From a bacterium (GTDB taxonomy: Bacteria; Patescibacteriota; Patescibacteriia; UBA9570), in assembly GCA_030698395.1 (NCBI GenBank), contig JAUYKW010000023.1:1-47234 (forward strand): a stretch of 47,234 nt of DNA, read 5' to 3'. The notes beneath the pieces are model-generated. The model was not told where the DNA came from. It ran no database searches and saw only the letters and a list, made by a program, of their open reading frames with translations. Shown here piece after piece: positions 12,279 through 19,359 of the stretch (its first letter is position 1; each line of letters opens with the position of its first letter). The position numbers were made by a program, and so were the translations under genes.

Positions 12279-12420
12279 TTTCTGAAACAAGCTCTCCCCT
12301 TAAATCTACTTCATTTTTAAGTTCCAACTCACCCACAAGTTTTGATAAAATCTCAAGACTCTCTGTTTGTGGAGGTCGAAGACTAAGCCTGTTGTTAATA
12401 GTTTGAGCATTTTTATTCAT
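12172..12420 (-). pseudogene. Truncated type III restriction subunit (res) remnant
   Basis: The ORF overlaps the Mod stop by 8 nt (ATG 12420), the usual mod-res junction. Its first 50 residues (INNRLSLRPPQTESLEIL, then ELELKNEVDL) match the N-terminus of type III Res helicase-nucleases. A full Res is 800-1000 aa; this ORF is 82 aa and ends before any helicase motif. The segment FAIKQGVGG sits where FALATGVGKT (Walker A) would be expected and may be its degraded relic. No Res C-terminus or endonuclease domain is found downstream. Confidence 0.65.
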
Positions 12421-14050
12421 AGTCTTCATGGTTAAGATCTTGGTCATCAGCAACTTCTTCAGTTGATTGAATAATATTCAAATCATAATTGTCTTGACCA
12501 AATTCACATTTACCTAGAATCATTAAAGGAATTTTCTTGATCGTGATATTAGGATGTCGGCTATCACATTCGGGAGCATAAGATTTAGCACAAATAAGCA
12601 AGCTTTCCTCATCATTCATTTCTTCATGAATCTTATCGAGTTGCTCCACAGTGACAAAGGCAGTTGTGACAAATATATGATCTGTTTCAGTTGATTGACC
12701 CTGTTTCCAATACAATTCTTCATGAGGAGCAAATCTAAAACCTTCATGCTTACACATGGCTGCACTAAGCATATTGGCATTGTACTTTTCATCAATGACC
12801 CAATTGCCGTATTTGTCTTTTTGAAGCAGACTTGGGGCAAGATTATAAAACTTGAAGCCACCTCCACCTTTCCAGCTCAATGTCTCGGAAAGTAGTAATC
12901 CATCAGTATTATCTACTACCTTCCTGAGTCTTGGTAAGCAGTGCGTATTAGCATGTTCACCATACTCAATCCCAATATGCCTTCTGTTCATTTTATGGGC
13001 AACGGCTGAAGTTGTTCCTGATCCAAGAAAACTATCAAGGATCCAATCTCCCGGTTTTGAAGCTAGATCTAAAATTCTTTTTATAAGTCGTTCTGGTTTT
13101 GGGGTGTCGAATACGTCATCTCTAAATAATTCCTTTATTTCTCTTTTTGACTCTTGATTATCACCAACTTCTATTCGATACCAGATAGTTTTTGAAACCA
13201 TGCCTTCTTGTACTTCAGAAAGAAATCTTTTAATTCGTGGCAAACCATTCCCATCTTTTCCAAACCATATTCTATTATCTTTAATGAGTCCTTCAAATTT
13301 TTCTTTAGTAAATCCCCAGCATCTGCTATTAGGAGGATTGACAATCCTACCAGAGGGCGTAGTGATTGGAAAATCAGTATTGGCCGAGTAAGTCTTGACT
13401 GAAGGATTATCGGACATCCACGCTCCACGGGAATCATTATCAGGATTTTTATACGAAGAATTATTCTCATTTGTCCTTGGTAATAAATATGGTCGCCAAA
13501 CTGACTTATTATTTGCATACACTAAAATGTGATCATGGCTGTCGGAAAGCCATTTCGCATCATTTTGAGGAGAATATTTTTTCTCCCAAATTACATTTGC
13601 TACAAAATTCGAACGCCCAAAAACTTCATCACATAGCACTTTCAGATAATGGCTTTCATCGTCATCTATGGAAATCCAAATACTACCTGCGGTGGGGTGC
13701 AAAAGATTTTTTAAGATATCAAGTCGTGGCCTCATTAAGCTAAGCCATGTTGAGTGCTCAAGATTGTCATCATAATGCTCAAAAGCACTCCCCGTGTTGT
13801 AGGGAGGATCGATATAAATACATTTTACTTTACCAGCATAATCCTGCTCCAAAGCTTTCAAAGCTAAGAGGTTATCTCCGTGAATCAGCATGTTCTCTGA
13901 GTTCGGATCACCATATGATTTTTCAGGATCTTCAATCAGAATTCTTGGCTCCAATTTCACTTCATCATCTTTACCAATCCATGTTAGCTCAAGGCGTTGC
14001 TTCCTCTTTTTTGGAGTCTTACCGTTTTGTTGTTGATTATTATTATTCAT
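12413..14050 (-). CDS. Type III-like Mod DNA methyltransferase
   Basis: This 545-aa protein has catalytic motif IV DPPYNTGS (about residues 80-87) first and AdoMet motif I FLGSGTT (about 340) later, the order of beta-class N6-adenine/N4-cytosine methyltransferases such as type III Mod. The region between holds the likely target-recognition segment. ATG 14050 lies 2 nt after the stop of the 156-aa gene, so translation is coupled. With res truncated, the enzyme may act as an orphan methylase or together with the SNF2 helicase upstream. Adenine as the target is inferred from the family. Confidence 0.9.
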   Translation of the reverse strand: MNNNNQQQNGKTPKKRKQRLELTWIGKDDEVKLEPRILIEDPEKSYGDPNSENMLIHGDNLLALKALEQDYAGKVKCIYIDPPYNTGSAFEHYDDNLEHSTWLSLMRPRLDILKNLLHPTAGSIWISIDDDESHYLKVLCDEVFGRSNFVANVIWEKKYSPQNDAKWLSDSHDHILVYANNKSVWRPYLLPRTNENNSSYKNPDNDSRGAWMSDNPSVKTYSANTDFPITTPSGRIVNPPNSRCWGFTKEKFEGLIKDNRIWFGKDGNGLPRIKRFLSEVQEGMVSKTIWYRIEVGDNQESKREIKELFRDDVFDTPKPERLIKRILDLASKPGDWILDSFLGSGTTSAVAHKMNRRHIGIEYGEHANTHCLPRLRKVVDNTDGLLLSETLSWKGGGGFKFYNLAPSLLQKDKYGNWVIDEKYNANMLSAAMCKHEGFRFAPHEELYWKQGQSTETDHIFVTTAFVTVEQLDKIHEEMNDEESLLICAKSYAPECDSRHPNITIKKIPLMILGKCEFGQDNYDLNIIQSTEEVADDQDLNHEDYE

Positions 14051-14052
14051 AT

Positions 14053-14523
14053 TTATGACCAGTTAAAAGTTTTTAATCTATTTCGAGGAATTGTATATTC
14101 TAAGATTTTCCCTCTACACTTAACATGTAATCGAGTATTATTATTCCAAGAAACAATTACACTTGTTGATTTTTTTTCAAATAAGAGGCGTGTGTTATCT
14201 ATATCTTCCCATTCAAGTGTACAAACTTCGTTATCAGCGCAGACCAAACATATCAATAAATTTTTTTCAGTTTCAATTTCTCTCAATTTAGAGATATCTG
14301 ACTCGGAAAATGTAAATGAAGAATAATGCACTTCCTTTTTTCCAATACGTACATTTGATGTGGACTTAACAAAGACCTTGTGTGTGGATTGGTTATCCGT
14401 AATCTCATAAGCACTCCATTCAAAATCATCACTTTTTTCTAGCAATTTTATATTTATTCTCGGACTTCTAATTATCTGAGATAATACAACGCCGTGATAT
14501 AATTCAAATTTAGAAATAGTCAT
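14053..14523 (-). CDS. Small protein of the Mod/SNF2 operon
   Basis: The protein is 156 aa. I do not recognise the family. It begins ISKFELYHGVVLSQI and is rich in beta-strand-like segments, with one Cys-containing stretch (LLICLVCADNEVCTLEW) and a basic C-terminus. It sits 11 nt after the helicase and 2 nt before mod, so it is an integral part of the operon. A recognition or accessory subunit is possible; there is no direct evidence. Confidence 0.6.
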   Translation of the reverse strand: MTISKFELYHGVVLSQIIRSPRINIKLLEKSDDFEWSAYEITDNQSTHKVFVKSTSNVRIGKKEVHYSSFTFSESDISKLREIETEKNLLICLVCADNEVCTLEWEDIDNTRLLFEKKSTSVIVSWNNNTRLHVKCRGKILEYTIPRNRLKTFNWS

Positions 14524-14534
14524 TGTATATTTAA

Positions 14535-17474
14535 TTAAATCACTTTCCAGCGAATAGTAAATAATGGAGTAAGTGTGGAGTCTTGTTTTAACTGAGCCTC
14601 CACGCGATCGATTAGATTTTCTTTTCTTTCTTCCATTTCATCTTGAGATACAAATAGCTTTTTTCTCATTTCATTTCGTTTCTTTTCCATGTCTTTAATT
14701 TCTTTTTGCACCTTCAATTTCTCATCGAGATTCAAAATATTCTTGGAATTAGTCTTAGCTGCCTTAATATCAATATCCAGCTTCTTTAAATCCAACTCCA
14801 AGGCAATCTTCATGTCATCCGCCCACTTGTCCAGTTTTTCTACCTCAGCATCAAAGAATTCGCTATTTCTTCCTGCAATTTGTCCTGAAATTATAGTTAC
14901 TGTTTGAGCTTCAAATTCATTAATCTTATTTTCTTCTACTGAAGTTAGGGAGTCGCAAGCCTGCTCCTTTCCATAGAGGGCTAGGATTTTTTTTGCCACT
15001 TCGGATTCTAGTTTCTCACCATTATTATCAAACGCTATAGCAATAATATGATCTTCTTTTTCAAATGCCTGAACTGTATAATTGGAAACTCGTAGCAATC
15101 CGCTTTGTCCAACAAAATGTTCTAAAACTGAAATAATTGCCTGATGATTGCTATAGTCAAAAACTATCTCTTTTACAGGCAGGTCACTATTTTTTACTTC
15201 ATTCAAAATTCTTTGCGCTAATGGATGGCCTGGGCGGTAAACATGAGAATCTTCAATATTATTTCCAATTTTATATGGACCCGGTGGGATAGATTCACCC
15301 TGAAATGGGTTTTTCTCCAAAGAAAATGAATATTCATGTTCAGCAAATTTTGCACTGTCACCCAAATAAAATTTAGTAGTCTCCCATAACCATTTTTGAT
15401 AAGTATCCAGATAGCGCTGGCTTTCATGAAGATTTAATTTCAGCTTCTCATGCACTTCGGCATCAAAATTTTCAAGAAGTTTTTGTTTGGCATCACCCAT
15501 ATTTTCCTGAATACTAACATCCATTTCTTCTTGCAAAGAGTCAAATGCACTGTTTATTTCATCTTCTGATCTACAGGATTGATAAATCGAAGCAATGCGC
15601 TTCTCAAAATCCACACCTGATTCAATACTTCCAAGAACTTCATCGCTGGCACCAAATACACCTTTAAATAAATTGAACTTCTGATCTAAAAGTTCGTATA
15701 CTCGCTGATCTGCGGCGTTTTTTCTGTTGACGAAATTAATAACCACAACATCATGTTTCTGCCCATAACGATGACAACGACCGATTCTTTGCTCAATTCG
15801 TTGCGGATTCCAGGGTAAATCATAGTTTATTACCAAAGAACAAAACTGCAGATTTATTCCTTCCGCACCTGCCTCTGTGGCAATCATTATTTCCGCTTCA
15901 TTCTTAAAATAATCTACAATGGCCGCGCGCATATCAGATGTTTTTGATCCGGTAATTTTATCTGTATCTTTGTGTTTTTTCATCCATGCTAAATATATCT
16001 CTTTTGACTTAGGATCATTGTTAGAGCCATTGAAAAATACAACTTTATCTTTATAGCCATTATCAGAAAGTAGCTCTAATAAATAATTCTGAGTAATTCT
16101 AGATTCTGTAAAAATGATGGCTTTCTTTTTAGCGCCTAATTTTTCCGTCATCTGAAAACCTTTCTGTAGACCAATAAGCAAGGCATCCCCCTTTGAGTTT
16201 TTAAAGATCTTCTTTGCAAGATCTCTATATTTTTCCAAATCTATTTTCTCCGCCTTCATTGCTTGAATATCTTCTTTGGTATAAATTTTTTCTTCCTCAT
16301 TTTCCTCATCATCAATATCCTCATCATCAATCCACTCATCTGATAATTCATCAAAGGAGTCAAAATTTTCTTCGATACCAGGAATGCCTAATTCACCTTG
16401 AGCTTGCTGCTTTTTAGCTTTCTCAATCAATTTTTCCAGTTTATAGGCGAGTCCTGTAAGTGTGCTAGCAATAGCAAAAGATGATGAAGCTAGCAGTTTA
16501 CGAAGAATAAGTGACATTAAGTGTCTTTGGCTGGCTGGTAAAGCATAGAGCTTTGGTCTTTGTAGATAATCCGTCATCTCATTATAAAGCTCCACCTCTT
16601 CTTCTGATGGGACATAGTCCTCGGTAAGTGGTATGCGCTTAGTGTATTTGATATATTCTAAAACCTGTTTTCGAAGTGTTCTATTGCAGACAGTTTTTAA
16701 TCGTTTTCTCAGATCAATAAACATTTCTTGCTTTGGCTCTATCAGACCAAGTTCATTTTCGTAAATATCCTGCACTTGGGATACCCGTGAGTATTGTGAT
16801 TTGAAACTTTTTAGGTCACCAAAAACATGATCATCAATAATGCTAACAAGCCCATATAATTCGAGCAATGAATTTTGCAAAGGAGTGGCTGTAAGTAGAA
16901 TTTTAGGGACGTTCTCAAGTGAGTCCTTTATGTCTTTAGCAATTTTATTACTAGGCTTATATACATTTCTCAATCTGTGAGCTTCATCAATAATAGCTAA
17001 ATCCCACGCAGTTTGTTTTACATAGGGAGCTTTATTGCGAGCAAAATGATATGAACAAATTATAATGGTATCGCCTTGATCAAACGGATTGAGATTTCCT
17101 TCTTTTAGACATTGGTTAAACGATTTTGCTTCTAGAATTGTGGATGGAATAAAAAACTTTTCTTGAAGCTCAGTACTCCATTGTTTACGAAGGTTAGACG
17201 GCACAATCAAAAGCATTCTTCTTTTACGCTCAGCCCATTTCTGAGAAATAACCAAACCAGCTTCAATTGTTTTCCCTAAACCTACTTCATCTGCCAAAAT
17301 TGCCCCTTTGGAAAGTGGTGAGCGAAAAGCAAATAAAGCCGCTTCAATCTGATGAGGATTCAAATCAACCTGAGCATTAGATAAAGTGGAGGTAAATTTC
17401 TCCAAACTGTCAGAGGCACTCCGTTTTGTTAACTCGTAAGCATAATATTTTGCGTGGTAATCGGTTATGTTCAT
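14535..17474 (-). CDS. SNF2/HepA-type helicase of a defence operon
   Basis: This 979-aa protein has SNF2-family motifs: I DEVGLGKT (about residue 62), II DEAH, III TATP and VI QRIGRCHRYGQ (about 605). An acidic insertion (EEWIDDEDIDDEENEEE-like, about 365-395) splits the two RecA lobes. A long coiled-coil C-terminus (KLDIDIKAAKTNSKN onwards) follows. Such helicases occur in operons with Mod methylases and act as DNA translocases in anti-phage systems such as DISARM (DrmD), though no drmABC genes are seen here. Its ATG is 2 nt after the XRE gene. ATP-driven DNA translocation is a family inference. Confidence 0.88.
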   Translation of the reverse strand: MNITDYHAKYYAYELTKRSASDSLEKFTSTLSNAQVDLNPHQIEAALFAFRSPLSKGAILADEVGLGKTIEAGLVISQKWAERKRRMLLIVPSNLRKQWSTELQEKFFIPSTILEAKSFNQCLKEGNLNPFDQGDTIIICSYHFARNKAPYVKQTAWDLAIIDEAHRLRNVYKPSNKIAKDIKDSLENVPKILLTATPLQNSLLELYGLVSIIDDHVFGDLKSFKSQYSRVSQVQDIYENELGLIEPKQEMFIDLRKRLKTVCNRTLRKQVLEYIKYTKRIPLTEDYVPSEEEVELYNEMTDYLQRPKLYALPASQRHLMSLILRKLLASSSFAIASTLTGLAYKLEKLIEKAKKQQAQGELGIPGIEENFDSFDELSDEWIDDEDIDDEENEEEKIYTKEDIQAMKAEKIDLEKYRDLAKKIFKNSKGDALLIGLQKGFQMTEKLGAKKKAIIFTESRITQNYLLELLSDNGYKDKVVFFNGSNNDPKSKEIYLAWMKKHKDTDKITGSKTSDMRAAIVDYFKNEAEIMIATEAGAEGINLQFCSLVINYDLPWNPQRIEQRIGRCHRYGQKHDVVVINFVNRKNAADQRVYELLDQKFNLFKGVFGASDEVLGSIESGVDFEKRIASIYQSCRSEDEINSAFDSLQEEMDVSIQENMGDAKQKLLENFDAEVHEKLKLNLHESQRYLDTYQKWLWETTKFYLGDSAKFAEHEYSFSLEKNPFQGESIPPGPYKIGNNIEDSHVYRPGHPLAQRILNEVKNSDLPVKEIVFDYSNHQAIISVLEHFVGQSGLLRVSNYTVQAFEKEDHIIAIAFDNNGEKLESEVAKKILALYGKEQACDSLTSVEENKINEFEAQTVTIISGQIAGRNSEFFDAEVEKLDKWADDMKIALELDLKKLDIDIKAAKTNSKNILNLDEKLKVQKEIKDMEKKRNEMRKKLFVSQDEMEERKENLIDRVEAQLKQDSTLTPLFTIRWKVI

Positions 17475-17476
17475 AA

Positions 17477-17689
17477 TTAATTTCGTATTAAGTCATCTAC
17501 CCCAACACCAAGACCATTAGCAATTTTGGTTAAAGTGTCGATTGTGGGATTTTCATTTGCGCCACTTTCAACAGTAACCACGGTATTTAAAGAAAGGTCT
17601 GCTAATTTTGAAAGGCGATCTTGTGAAATACTTTTTTCTACTCGCAATCGCTTCATGTTTTTTCCAATTGTATTTTTAGAATTTTGCAT
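17477..17689 (-). CDS. XRE-family transcriptional regulator
   Basis: This 70-aa protein is a single helix-turn-helix of the Cro/C1 type (KNMKRLRVEKSISQDRLSKL, then NTVVTVESG and IDTLTKIANGLGV). It is the first gene of the SNF2/Mod operon and resembles controller proteins that time restriction-modification expression. Just upstream, TACA-N6-TGTA (around 17690-17705) overlaps a TATACT/TATACA -10 region, a plausible autoregulatory site. Confidence 0.85.
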   Translation of the reverse strand: MQNSKNTIGKNMKRLRVEKSISQDRLSKLADLSLNTVVTVESGANENPTIDTLTKIANGLGVGVDDLIRN

Positions 17690-17822: not shown

Positions 17823-17857
17823 ACATAAAAGAGGCCAAAAATAGGCCCCTTTTATGT
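17823..17857 (-). terminator. Terminator of the 278-aa membrane protein gene
   Basis: Arms ACATAAAAG-A-GGCC and GGCC-C-CTTTTATGT pair over 13 of 14 positions around a 7-nt loop. The T-rich descending arm directly follows the stop at 17865. Confidence 0.7.
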
Positions 17858-17864
17858 TCGGCAA

Positions 17865-18701
17865 CTAAATTTCCAAATACAGCTTATCCTTTGTAAGATT
17901 CTTATTTATACCTGGATGAACATAATAATAGGCTGAGCCACTTTCCATCTGCTGCCATACAGGCTGGAAGCTCAAATTATCCCATTCATACTTTTGAAAC
18001 TCATCTTTGTTGAACCAAACCTCAATGGCTATCTCTGAATCCTTTTTTCCATACTGGTCGGTGAACTCAGTTTTATAGACGACTTGCACCTGATTAACTC
18101 CTTCAATCGTGAATGCCTCCTTACCGTACTGAACAAGATCTGCGTAATCCTTTCGTACAAGATCGTTTTCGTCCCAGAAGCTATCTTCTACTTTTGTCAC
18201 AGTTACTGCACTTGAAGTATCACTCCACGCAATATCATAACCCGAACGATTCTTAATGCTGTTATCGAAAGCTATCCATAGCCTGTCGATCATCGTCACT
18301 TCTTTTGGGGCCTCGGGCTGTATTTCATTGTTTACGTTTGTATCAATAGTTTCAACAACTACTTCTACTTTTGCATCTTCCTCTGCGATGGTAGGTGGCG
18401 TGTTGTTCTTTGCAACATTCGAATCATCATTATTGCTCGAACCTAATGATGCGACACTCGCAATGATCAATAAGATAAATGAAATAACAATGAGGACTGG
18501 TCGTGAAAATGTTGTATTCACTTTTTTCTCTAACCATTGCCTACTAGGTGGCAATATTAGTAATCCAGCTGCTAATACGCAGATCCCGGCCAGAACGCTT
18601 TCGGATAATGCGCCTAATGTGCTAATTAGTAAAATAACTCCGAATATCCATCCGAGAGTATGTTTTTTCTTCTCTTTTTGGGAGTTAACGTCTTGCGACA
18701 T
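17865..18701 (-). CDS. Membrane protein with exported C-terminal domain
   Basis: This 278-aa protein has three hydrophobic helices (about residues 17-33, 35-51 and 68-88). An acidic Thr/Asn/Val-rich linker (90-130) and a soluble C-terminal domain with several Trp/Tyr (about 135-278) follow. I recognise no family. It is preceded by an unusually long structured leader and followed by its own terminator, so it is a single-gene unit between the defence operon and tRNA-Gln. No Shine-Dalgarno is visible before ATG 18701; one arm of the leader switch lies only 8 nt upstream. Confidence 0.7.
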   Translation of the reverse strand: MSQDVNSQKEKKKHTLGWIFGVILLISTLGALSESVLAGICVLAAGLLILPPSRQWLEKKVNTTFSRPVLIVISFILLIIASVASLGSSNNDDSNVAKNNTPPTIAEEDAKVEVVVETIDTNVNNEIQPEAPKEVTMIDRLWIAFDNSIKNRSGYDIAWSDTSSAVTVTKVEDSFWDENDLVRKDYADLVQYGKEAFTIEGVNQVQVVYKTEFTDQYGKKDSEIAIEVWFNKDEFQKYEWDNLSFQPVWQQMESGSAYYYVHPGINKNLTKDKLYLEI

Positions 18702-18905
18702 AGTTGTGTGTAGTTAGGGCTTAATTAAATTCTGGCTCAAGAAACACAAAAGGCCTCCCGAACCAGCGACAGCCCTTACGGAACTGCCATCCATCCTTTC
18801 GAATGGATACCCTAACTACAGAATACTGGTCGGAAGACCGTCTCTATGTAGTTAGGGATACTGACAACCATGCCTCCGAAAAGGTTTAGGCTGTTTGCTT
18901 TCGCA
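18702..18905 (-). ncRNA. Structured 5' leader with alternative hairpins (riboswitch-like)
   Basis: Read on the minus strand there are three 11-nt elements: arm A CCCTAACTACA (18847-18857), arm B TGTAGTTAGGG (18810-18820) and arm A' CCCTAACTACA (18709-18719). B is perfectly complementary to both A and A', so two exclusive pairings exist. A:B encloses a GGTC-TTCC-GACC hairpin. Between B and A' lie stems ATCCAT/ATGGAT, GGCAGT/GCTGTC and CTGGTTC/GAGCCAG. Pairing B:A' would place a stem directly before the start codon. I match it to no known riboswitch class. A promoter upstream near 18910 (TACAAT) is weak. Confidence 0.55.
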
Positions 18906-19042: not shown

Positions 19043-19073
19043 CAAAACCCCTCGCAAATTTGGAGGGGTTTTG
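19043..19073 (-). terminator. Terminator downstream of tRNA-Gln
   Basis: Perfect 11-bp stem CAAAACCCCTC / GAGGGGTTTTG with a 9-nt loop, 44 nt beyond the tRNA 3' end. Confidence 0.75.
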
Positions 19074-19116
19074 AGGGTTTGAGGTTGATAGGTCGGATCG
19101 CACGATCCGTCCATGA

Positions 19117-19191
19117 TGGCTGGGGCGGTAGGATTCGAACCTACGCATGCGCGGACCAGAACCGCGTGCCTTACCGCTTGGCTACGCCCCA
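19117..19191 (-). tRNA. tRNA-Gln (anticodon CTG)
   Basis: The minus strand folds into a full cloverleaf. The acceptor is TGGGGCG/CGCCCCA, and the anticodon stem CGCGG/CCGCG encloses loop TTCTGGT, giving CTG, which decodes CAG. The T-arm carries GGTTCGAATCC. Discriminator G is followed by an encoded CCA (19117-19119). Confidence 0.93.
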
Positions 19192-19202
19192 ATGAATTGT
19201 CA

Positions 19203-19359
19203 ACCGCTTTCCGCCGGAGGCGGATCCGCCTTTGGCGGAGGCTACGCCCCATCCGGACAGTTGCTTCGCAACTGAACGGACAAGATCGGAATTATTACCG
19301 CTTGCTTGTCTGTTCAATTTCGAATGAAATGAGAATTTGGTCAAAGCTACGCCTCAATG
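19203..19359. repeat. Two interrupted copies of the tRNA-Gln 5' end
   Basis: In tRNA-Gln the plus strand reads ACCGCTTGGCTACGCCCCAATG. Copy 2 has ACCGCTT (19203-19209) and GGCTACGCCCCA (19240-19251), separated by a 30-nt palindromic insert (GGCGGATCCGCC core). Copy 3 has TTACCGCTTG (19295-19304) and GCTACGCCTCAATG (19346-19359), separated by 41 nt. Both are broken at the same point, in the D-loop. A CAGTTG-CTTCG-CAACTG hairpin lies between the copies. Confidence 0.65.

What the first reader, a model, noticed from the sequence alone, without database searches (positions are those of the whole stretch)
18702..18905. Riboswitch-like leader with one arm that can pair with either of two identical partners
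Element TGTAGTTAGGG (18810-18820, minus strand) is perfectly complementary to CCCTAACTACA both 27 nt upstream and 90 nt downstream, the latter just before the start codon. At least four additional stems are interleaved. Mutually exclusive 11-bp helices are the hallmark of a regulatory switch. The downstream gene encodes a three-helix membrane protein of unknown role. It fits no riboswitch class I know.
Basis: seen in the sequence. Interest (0 to 1): 0.65.

Follow-up and report, generated by a model that had tools for sequence, protein, structure and literature searches.

The report
LOOT RNA leader with start-codon switch
The stretch is a bacterial RNA of the known but unexplained LOOT family (listed as a stand-alone small RNA); here and in its relatives it sits at the front of protein genes, and in about a quarter of them one of its arms can pair either with a partner inside the RNA or with a matching copy at the gene's start codon, which makes it look like an on/off switch for translation.

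Summary
In detail: three 11-nt arms (A 18857-18847, A' 18820-18810, A'' 18719-18709, minus strand) allow A:A' or A':A'', and the 11-mer occurs nowhere else in the genome. A'' and the 3' tail lie outside Rfam's model. In 112 LOOT loci of the same class, 25 carry a copy of their own P2 arm of >=9 nt (0.6 expected with swapped arms), normally 0-10 nt before the start codon. In 65 further loci, fetched afterwards, 15 do (0.15 expected). The arms differ between loci and change together. LOOT is thus a 5' leader, not a free sRNA: 162 of 174 loci have a same-strand gene starting within 150 nt (39% at random positions). A second unmodelled element, a 7-bp pseudoknot between the P2 loop and the tail, pairs in 99.5% of cells. 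Best reading: an orphan riboswitch-like leader in which A':A'' hides the start codon when P2 opens. Signal, ON/OFF direction and ligand binding are not shown. The 2017 LOOT paper was not held, so prior description cannot be excluded.

The parts
18768..18892 (-). LOOT RNA core (Rfam RF03000, model 1-121 complete)
   Evidence: cmscan 60.7 bits, gathering 46.4, E 4.7e-9; found again with a model built here from relatives, 50.5 bits
18907..18926 (-). Promoter-like -10 (TACTAT, 18926-18921) followed 6 nt later by conserved ACAATTTA (18914-18907); inferred transcription start just 5' of LOOT
   Evidence: ACAATT-type element within 60 nt upstream in 92 of 112 loci, often with a TATAAT-like hexamer 6-7 nt before it; start site inferred, not measured; the generic promoter scan did not list it
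18866..18892 (-). P1 with internal loop CCUAAA/CAUGG, like the 11-nt GAAA-tetraloop receptor
   Evidence: CCTAAA with CATGG in 70 and CCTAAC with TATGG in 25 of 112 loci; receptor resemblance from own knowledge
18847..18857 (-). Arm A, 5' strand of P2 (CCCUAACUACA)
18821..18846 (-). P2 terminal region L2; hairpin P2b GGUC-UUCC-GACC; CUUCCG 18836-18831 complementary to tail CGGGAG 18760-18755
18810..18820 (-). Arm A', 3' strand of P2 (UGUAGUUAGGG), can pair with A or with A''
18789..18808 (-). P3 with GAAA tetraloop
   Evidence: loop GAAA detected in 93 of 112 loci
18768..18788 (-). P4 with GNRA tetraloop (GUAA here)
   Evidence: GAAA/GCAA/GUAA in 89 of 112 loci
18741..18767 (-). Conserved 3' tail T (GCUGGUUCGGGAGGCC, 18767-18752) and U-rich UUUUGUGUUUC end; pairs with L2 (pseudoknot); terminator-like; outside the Rfam model
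   Evidence: own loop-tail duplex -24.1 vs -14.4 kcal/mol swapped; 99.5% of cells paired with 5 of 7 pairs changed on both sides; U-rich profile
18732..18766 (-). Competing tail hairpin formed by T and its 3' flank
   Evidence: MFE fold
18709..18719 (-). Arm A'' (CCCUAACUACA), second possible partner of A', ends 7 nt before the start codon
   Evidence: replicated
17865..18701 (-). Controlled gene: 278-aa membrane protein of unknown function
17823..17857 (-). Intrinsic-terminator-like hairpin after the gene; LOOT plus gene look like one transcription unit

Best explanation
The element is a LOOT RNA acting as a cis-regulatory 5' leader of the membrane-protein gene 17865-18701. SHOWN by sequence: the RNA belongs to RF03000; its P2 3' arm A' can pair with A (inside LOOT) or with A'' (at the translation start); the two cannot form together; and A, A' and A'' change together across loci. 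INFERRED: with P2 formed (A:A'), supported by P1, the P3 GAAA loop and the L2-tail pseudoknot, the start codon is free and translation is ON; when P2 is opened, A' pairs with A'' and the 30S site is blocked, OFF. UNKNOWN: what opens or stabilises P2 (small ligand, protein, or transcription speed). The tail plus U-rich run may add a transcription-termination step common to all LOOT leaders, A'' being an extra translational platform in about a quarter of them.
For: RF03000 match. Third arm of >=9 nt in 25 of 112 loci vs 0.6 expected, replicated in 15 of 65 loci outside the class vs 0.15. A'' ends within 10 nt of an ATG, or overlaps it, in 34 of 42 loci by the automatic rule; in L078, L110 and L162 it lies in the first codons, still inside a 30S footprint. 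Orthologous methyltransferase leaders changed all three arms together (L064 CCCAACCAC, L071 CCCATCCCT). In genomes with several LOOTs each arm mostly matches its own leader: 20 of 33 own vs 5 of 74 others at >=8 nt, two of the five being near-identical sister leaders. Same-strand gene within 150 nt in 162 of 174 loci vs 39% at random positions and 48 of 135 for divergent genes. The two states are nearly equal in energy in the window (-83.9 vs -84.7 kcal/mol) and in 34 of 42 loci within 5 kcal/mol. The A-rich context before A (linker) is repeated before A''.
Against: About three quarters of LOOT loci have no A'' and show no other pairing of the core with the start region as a group (L022 and L026 are exceptions), so start-codon masking is not the family's only mode. 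Near-equal energy follows partly from A and A'' being alike, and the energies ignore the pseudoknot and tertiary contacts. A:A' is local and forms first, so something must open it. The wobble test (is A'' the complement of A' or a copy of A?) is 5:1 in favour of pairing but most informative sites are at arm ends. No expression data.
Confidence: 0.68

Rival explanations
1. LOOT is mainly a transcription attenuator: the tail T pairs with the P2 loop and, followed directly by a U-rich run, acts as an intrinsic terminator whose 5' half lies about 70 nt upstream; P2/P2b and the tail hairpin are the competing structures, and A'' is secondary.
For: L2:T pairing is found across the family with double changes; after T the first three bases are U and positions 4-9 stay U-rich; the tail hairpin in the window is picked up as terminator-like.
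Against: The U-run is often broken by G (UUUGUGUUU), and the promoter/terminator scan finds terminator-like sites about as often in shuffles. It does not explain why A'' sits at the start codon. Not exclusive of the best explanation.
Confidence: 0.3
2. Same switch, but driven by a protein or by temperature rather than by a small ligand (protein-responsive leader or RNA thermometer).
For: Downstream genes are very varied, with no shared metabolite pathway; two states of similar energy.
Against: A strongly conserved core with tetraloop/receptor-like parts and a pseudoknot is more than a thermometer needs; no candidate protein found.
Confidence: 0.3
3. LOOT is a stand-alone trans-acting sRNA, as typed in Rfam, and the downstream gene is incidental.
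For: Rfam type 'Gene; sRNA'; own promoter-like region.
Against: 162 of 174 loci lie directly before a same-strand gene vs 39% at random positions; A'' is in cis and arm-specific; the window's 11-mer has no other site in the genome.
Confidence: 0.08
4. DNA-level feature: a mobile palindrome, recombination site or target-site duplication that happens to contain three arms.
For: Arms are palindromic at DNA level; LOOT is multi-copy in some genomes (up to 7).
Against: Single copy here, arms found nowhere else; single-strand features (GNRA loops, receptor-like motif, G-U changes) and constant position relative to start codons.
Confidence: 0.03

Closest known systems
LOOT RNA, Rfam RF03000
   Same: P1, P2, P2b, P3, P4 and their covariation; the window element scores above the gathering cut-off.
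   Different: Rfam's model stops at P4 and types it as an sRNA. Not in the 121-position model: the 3' tail with its pseudoknot to the P2 loop, the A'' arm at the start codon, and the consistent 5'-leader position. Rivas 2020 (PMC7657543) reports unusual cross-covariations in LOOT but no function.
Translational riboswitches / attenuator leaders with alternative 1:2 versus 2:3 pairing
   Same: Conserved core, variable platform, mutually exclusive helices, start-site masking.
   Different: No known aptamer matched, no ligand known; the masked site is a C/A-rich copy of the core's own arm rather than a purine-rich Shine-Dalgarno sequence.
Riboswitches with a terminator-embedded aptamer (e.g. HMP-PP/thiS class, PMC6478431, abstract seen only)
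   Same: In LOOT the tail that closes the pseudoknot is directly followed by a U-rich run, so sensing part and possible terminator overlap.
   Different: Different fold and genes; termination not shown for LOOT.

Membership tests
LOOT RNA (RF03000) | Covariance-model score above the gathering threshold over the full model | tested here: met
   60.7 vs 46.4 bits, positions 1-121 of 121
LOOT RNA (RF03000) | P1-P4 architecture with CCUAAA/CAUGG internal loop and GAAA-capped P3 | tested here: met
   alignment; loci statistics
LOOT RNA (RF03000) | Free-standing sRNA gene (Rfam's type label, not part of the model) | tested here: inconclusive
   leader position in 162 of 174 loci speaks against the label, but transcripts were not measured
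Riboswitch | Located in the 5' leader of the gene it controls | tested here: met
   same transcript inferred, not measured
Riboswitch | Mutually exclusive structures, one of which covers the expression signal | tested here: met
   sequence and covariation only; effect on expression not tested
Riboswitch | Direct binding of a small molecule or ion by the RNA | not testable with these tools
   needs in-line probing or calorimetry
Known riboswitch classes in Rfam 15 | Match to any described riboswitch model | tested here: not met
   only LOOT and tRNA reach threshold; no riboswitch even at E <= 1
Intrinsic transcription attenuator | GC-rich helix directly followed by a U-tract, with a competing helix | tested here: inconclusive
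   helix L2:T conserved, U-tract interrupted by G
Mobile palindrome / repeat element | Copies at unrelated sites | tested here: not met
   only three 11-mer occurrences in the genome, all here; one LOOT in the genome

The most novel reading that the evidence does not exclude
LOOT is a new orphan riboswitch class of small-genome bacteria with a two-part platform: a pseudoknot-terminator used by all members and, in a quarter of them, a replica of the core's own P2 strand placed at the start codon (A-rich linker included), so that the messenger can swap its start site into the sensor fold. The replica form is favoured by DNA methyltransferase and restriction genes, whose expression must be tightly held.
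Probability: 0.3. Interest if true: 0.8.

Novelty: new variant of a known kind. Interest (0 to 1): 0.6.

Why it matters
LOOT was catalogued as an sRNA of unknown role. Showing that it is a leader of protein genes, with a start-codon arm that changes together with the core and a pseudoknot missing from the model, turns an orphan family into a testable switch and gives a list of genes it should control (restriction-modification enzymes, zinc-ribbon membrane proteins, secreted proteins). Little is known of gene regulation in these small-genome bacteria.

Tried and rejected
Chance repeat: rejected by swapped-arm controls and replication. Dispersed palindrome: rejected. Trans-acting sRNA: the arm finds no other exact site in the genome. 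Masking of the start by some other part of LOOT in loci without A'': no group signal, only L022 and L026. Function of the window protein: no Pfam or PADLOC match. The LOOT discovery paper (Weinberg et al. 2017, own knowledge; doi looked up) is not held. Method limits: arms were called by a simple longest-stem rule; L039 was read 9 nt out of register; some automatic start codons are wrong (L024, L035, L043, L103, L159); L153 in the replicate set is probably a chance hit.

Full report
WHAT IS THERE. On the minus strand the window holds CCCTAACTACA at 18857-18847 (A), its exact reverse complement at 18820-18810 (A'), and a second CCCTAACTACA at 18719-18709 (A''), 7 nt before the ATG of a 278-aa membrane-protein gene. 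The three sites are the only occurrences of the 11-mer in the 1.3-Mb genome. The leader folds far better than shuffled sequence (z -6.2).

WHAT IT IS. A search against Rfam identifies 18892-18768 as LOOT RNA, RF03000, 60.7 bits against a cut-off of 46.4. A:A' is helix P2 of that family. No known riboswitch matched, even at E <= 1. The genome has one LOOT. In the same class 84 of 381 sampled genomes carry it, in the phylum sample 82 of 380, and none of 14 well-known control genomes. A model built here from 29 relatives including the tail finds the window element again, and the core helices covary strongly (the alignment is fitted to the structure and so leans towards it).

THE THIRD ARM IS REAL. 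For each of 112 loci the P2 arms were located and the downstream 300 nt searched for the same arm. 25 loci have a match of 9 nt or more; swapping arms between loci predicts 0.6. The search was then repeated, with a shorter 130-nt window and only the complement of A' as query, on 65 loci from outside the class: 15 matches against 0.15 expected. The arm sequences are different in most loci (CCGACCAAGGC, CCTCCGCAAC, CCCATCCCT, CGTAACGCA and so on), so the third arm has followed the other two. Orthologous methyltransferase leaders L064 and L071 differ in all three arms in step. Within genomes that hold several LOOTs the arm mostly finds its own leader: 20 of 33 own against 5 of 74 other pairings reach 8 nt. 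In 34 of 42 loci the copy ends within 10 nt of an ATG or overlaps it. In L078, L110 and L162 it is written into the first codons of the protein. Where P2 contains a G-U or unmatched end base, A'' is the Watson-Crick complement of A' in five loci and follows A in one (L113); this favours pairing over mere duplication, but most of those sites are at arm ends and the evidence is modest. The A-rich stretch before A is repeated before A''.

LOOT IS A LEADER. 162 of 174 loci have a same-strand ATG reading frame of at least 60 codons starting 15-150 nt after LOOT; at random positions in the same loci it is 39%, and for divergent frames upstream 48 of 135. A TATAAT-like hexamer often lies 6-7 nt before a conserved ACAATTTAAT just upstream of LOOT, which suggests that transcription starts there. 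In the window, a terminator-like hairpin follows the gene at 17857-17823. Rfam's label 'sRNA' is therefore doubtful.

TWO FEATURES OUTSIDE RFAM'S MODEL OR TYPING. First, a conserved tail (consensus GCUGGCGnGGGGCUUUGUGUUU) directly after P4 is complementary to the P2 loop: own pairs average -24.1 kcal/mol against -14.4 for swapped ones. On an alignment not fitted to it, the 7-bp pseudoknot pairs in 99.5% of cells with double changes in 5 of 7 pairs. In window-like members the complementarity extends into hairpin P2b, so the two compete. The U-rich run after the tail makes a pseudoknot-terminator possible; this is inference. Second, the P1 internal loop (CCUAAA/CAUGG in 70 loci, CCUAAC/UAUGG in 25) resembles the 11-nt GAAA-tetraloop receptor, and P3 is capped by GAAA in 93 of 112 loci. 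A docking contact is likely; the receptor motif is from own knowledge and was not tested.

HOW IT PROBABLY WORKS. A:A' and A':A'' exclude each other and are close in energy: -83.9 against -84.7 kcal/mol in the window, median difference 1.7 kcal/mol over 42 loci with 34 within 5. This closeness is partly built in, since A and A'' are alike, and the numbers leave out pseudoknot and tertiary energy. With P2 formed the start is free; with P2 opened A' masks the start. The direction and the trigger are inferred. Loci without A'' show no substitute masking as a group, so the common mode must lie elsewhere, perhaps in the tail.

WHICH GENES. Downstream genes are varied: zinc-ribbon membrane proteins, trypsin-like and other secreted proteins, nucleases, and DNA methyltransferases or restriction subunits. 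Seven restriction-modification genes (L002, L013, L018, L064, L071, L098, L112) are all in the A'' set; for those families the counts in the A'' set equal the counts in all 107 proteins scanned. GmrSD (L069) lies outside it. By hand 7 of 23 against 0 of 84 gives about 1e-5, but the comparison was made after the fact and several loci are homologous. The window's own gene has no known family and lies next to a DISARM-like DrmD helicase and methyltransferase.

LITERATURE. Rfam 14 shows LOOT as a metagenome-based RNA (PMC7779021). Rfam 15 lists it among families whose structure was improved with R-scape (PMC11701678). Rivas 2020 calls it an extreme case with 28 cross-covariations (PMC7657543). No held paper found here gives a function. 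The 2017 discovery paper is not held, so some of the features described here may already be noted there.

VERDICT. A real, reproducible structural switch in a known RNA family of unknown function; leader role and third arm well supported by sequence, the mechanism plausible, the signal open.

Noticed in passing
window 12413-17689 (-): Defence-like cluster just downstream of the LOOT gene: XRE-type control protein, SNF2 helicase with best PADLOC match DrmD (E 1.8e-212), a small protein with weak DUF4365 similarity, and a type III-like adenine methyltransferase.
   Followed up: partly
window 19178-19252 and about 19349: The 5' end of the tRNA gene (19191-19120, minus) is repeated nearby (GGCTACGCCCCA at about 19240-19252, a weaker copy near 19349), as might be left by integration at a tRNA gene.
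   Followed up: no
window 19046-19076: Near-perfect palindrome (CAAAACCCCTCGCAAATTTGGAGGGGTTTTG) that could end transcription in both directions between the tRNA and LOOT.
   Followed up: no
L154 / L178 (G487:C3:17612-18107): Two LOOT RNAs in tandem about 240 nt apart; L080 also holds a second LOOT match, and G708 has seven copies.
   Followed up: no
L022 and L026: Two leaders without an exact third arm whose start region is still strongly complementary to the LOOT core (-32.5 and -26.3 kcal/mol), L022 around P3-P4, L026 around A' imperfectly.
   Followed up: no
G472:C25:1-121 and C88:1-121: LOOT copies exactly at contig ends, as if near-identical copies broke the assembly.
   Followed up: no
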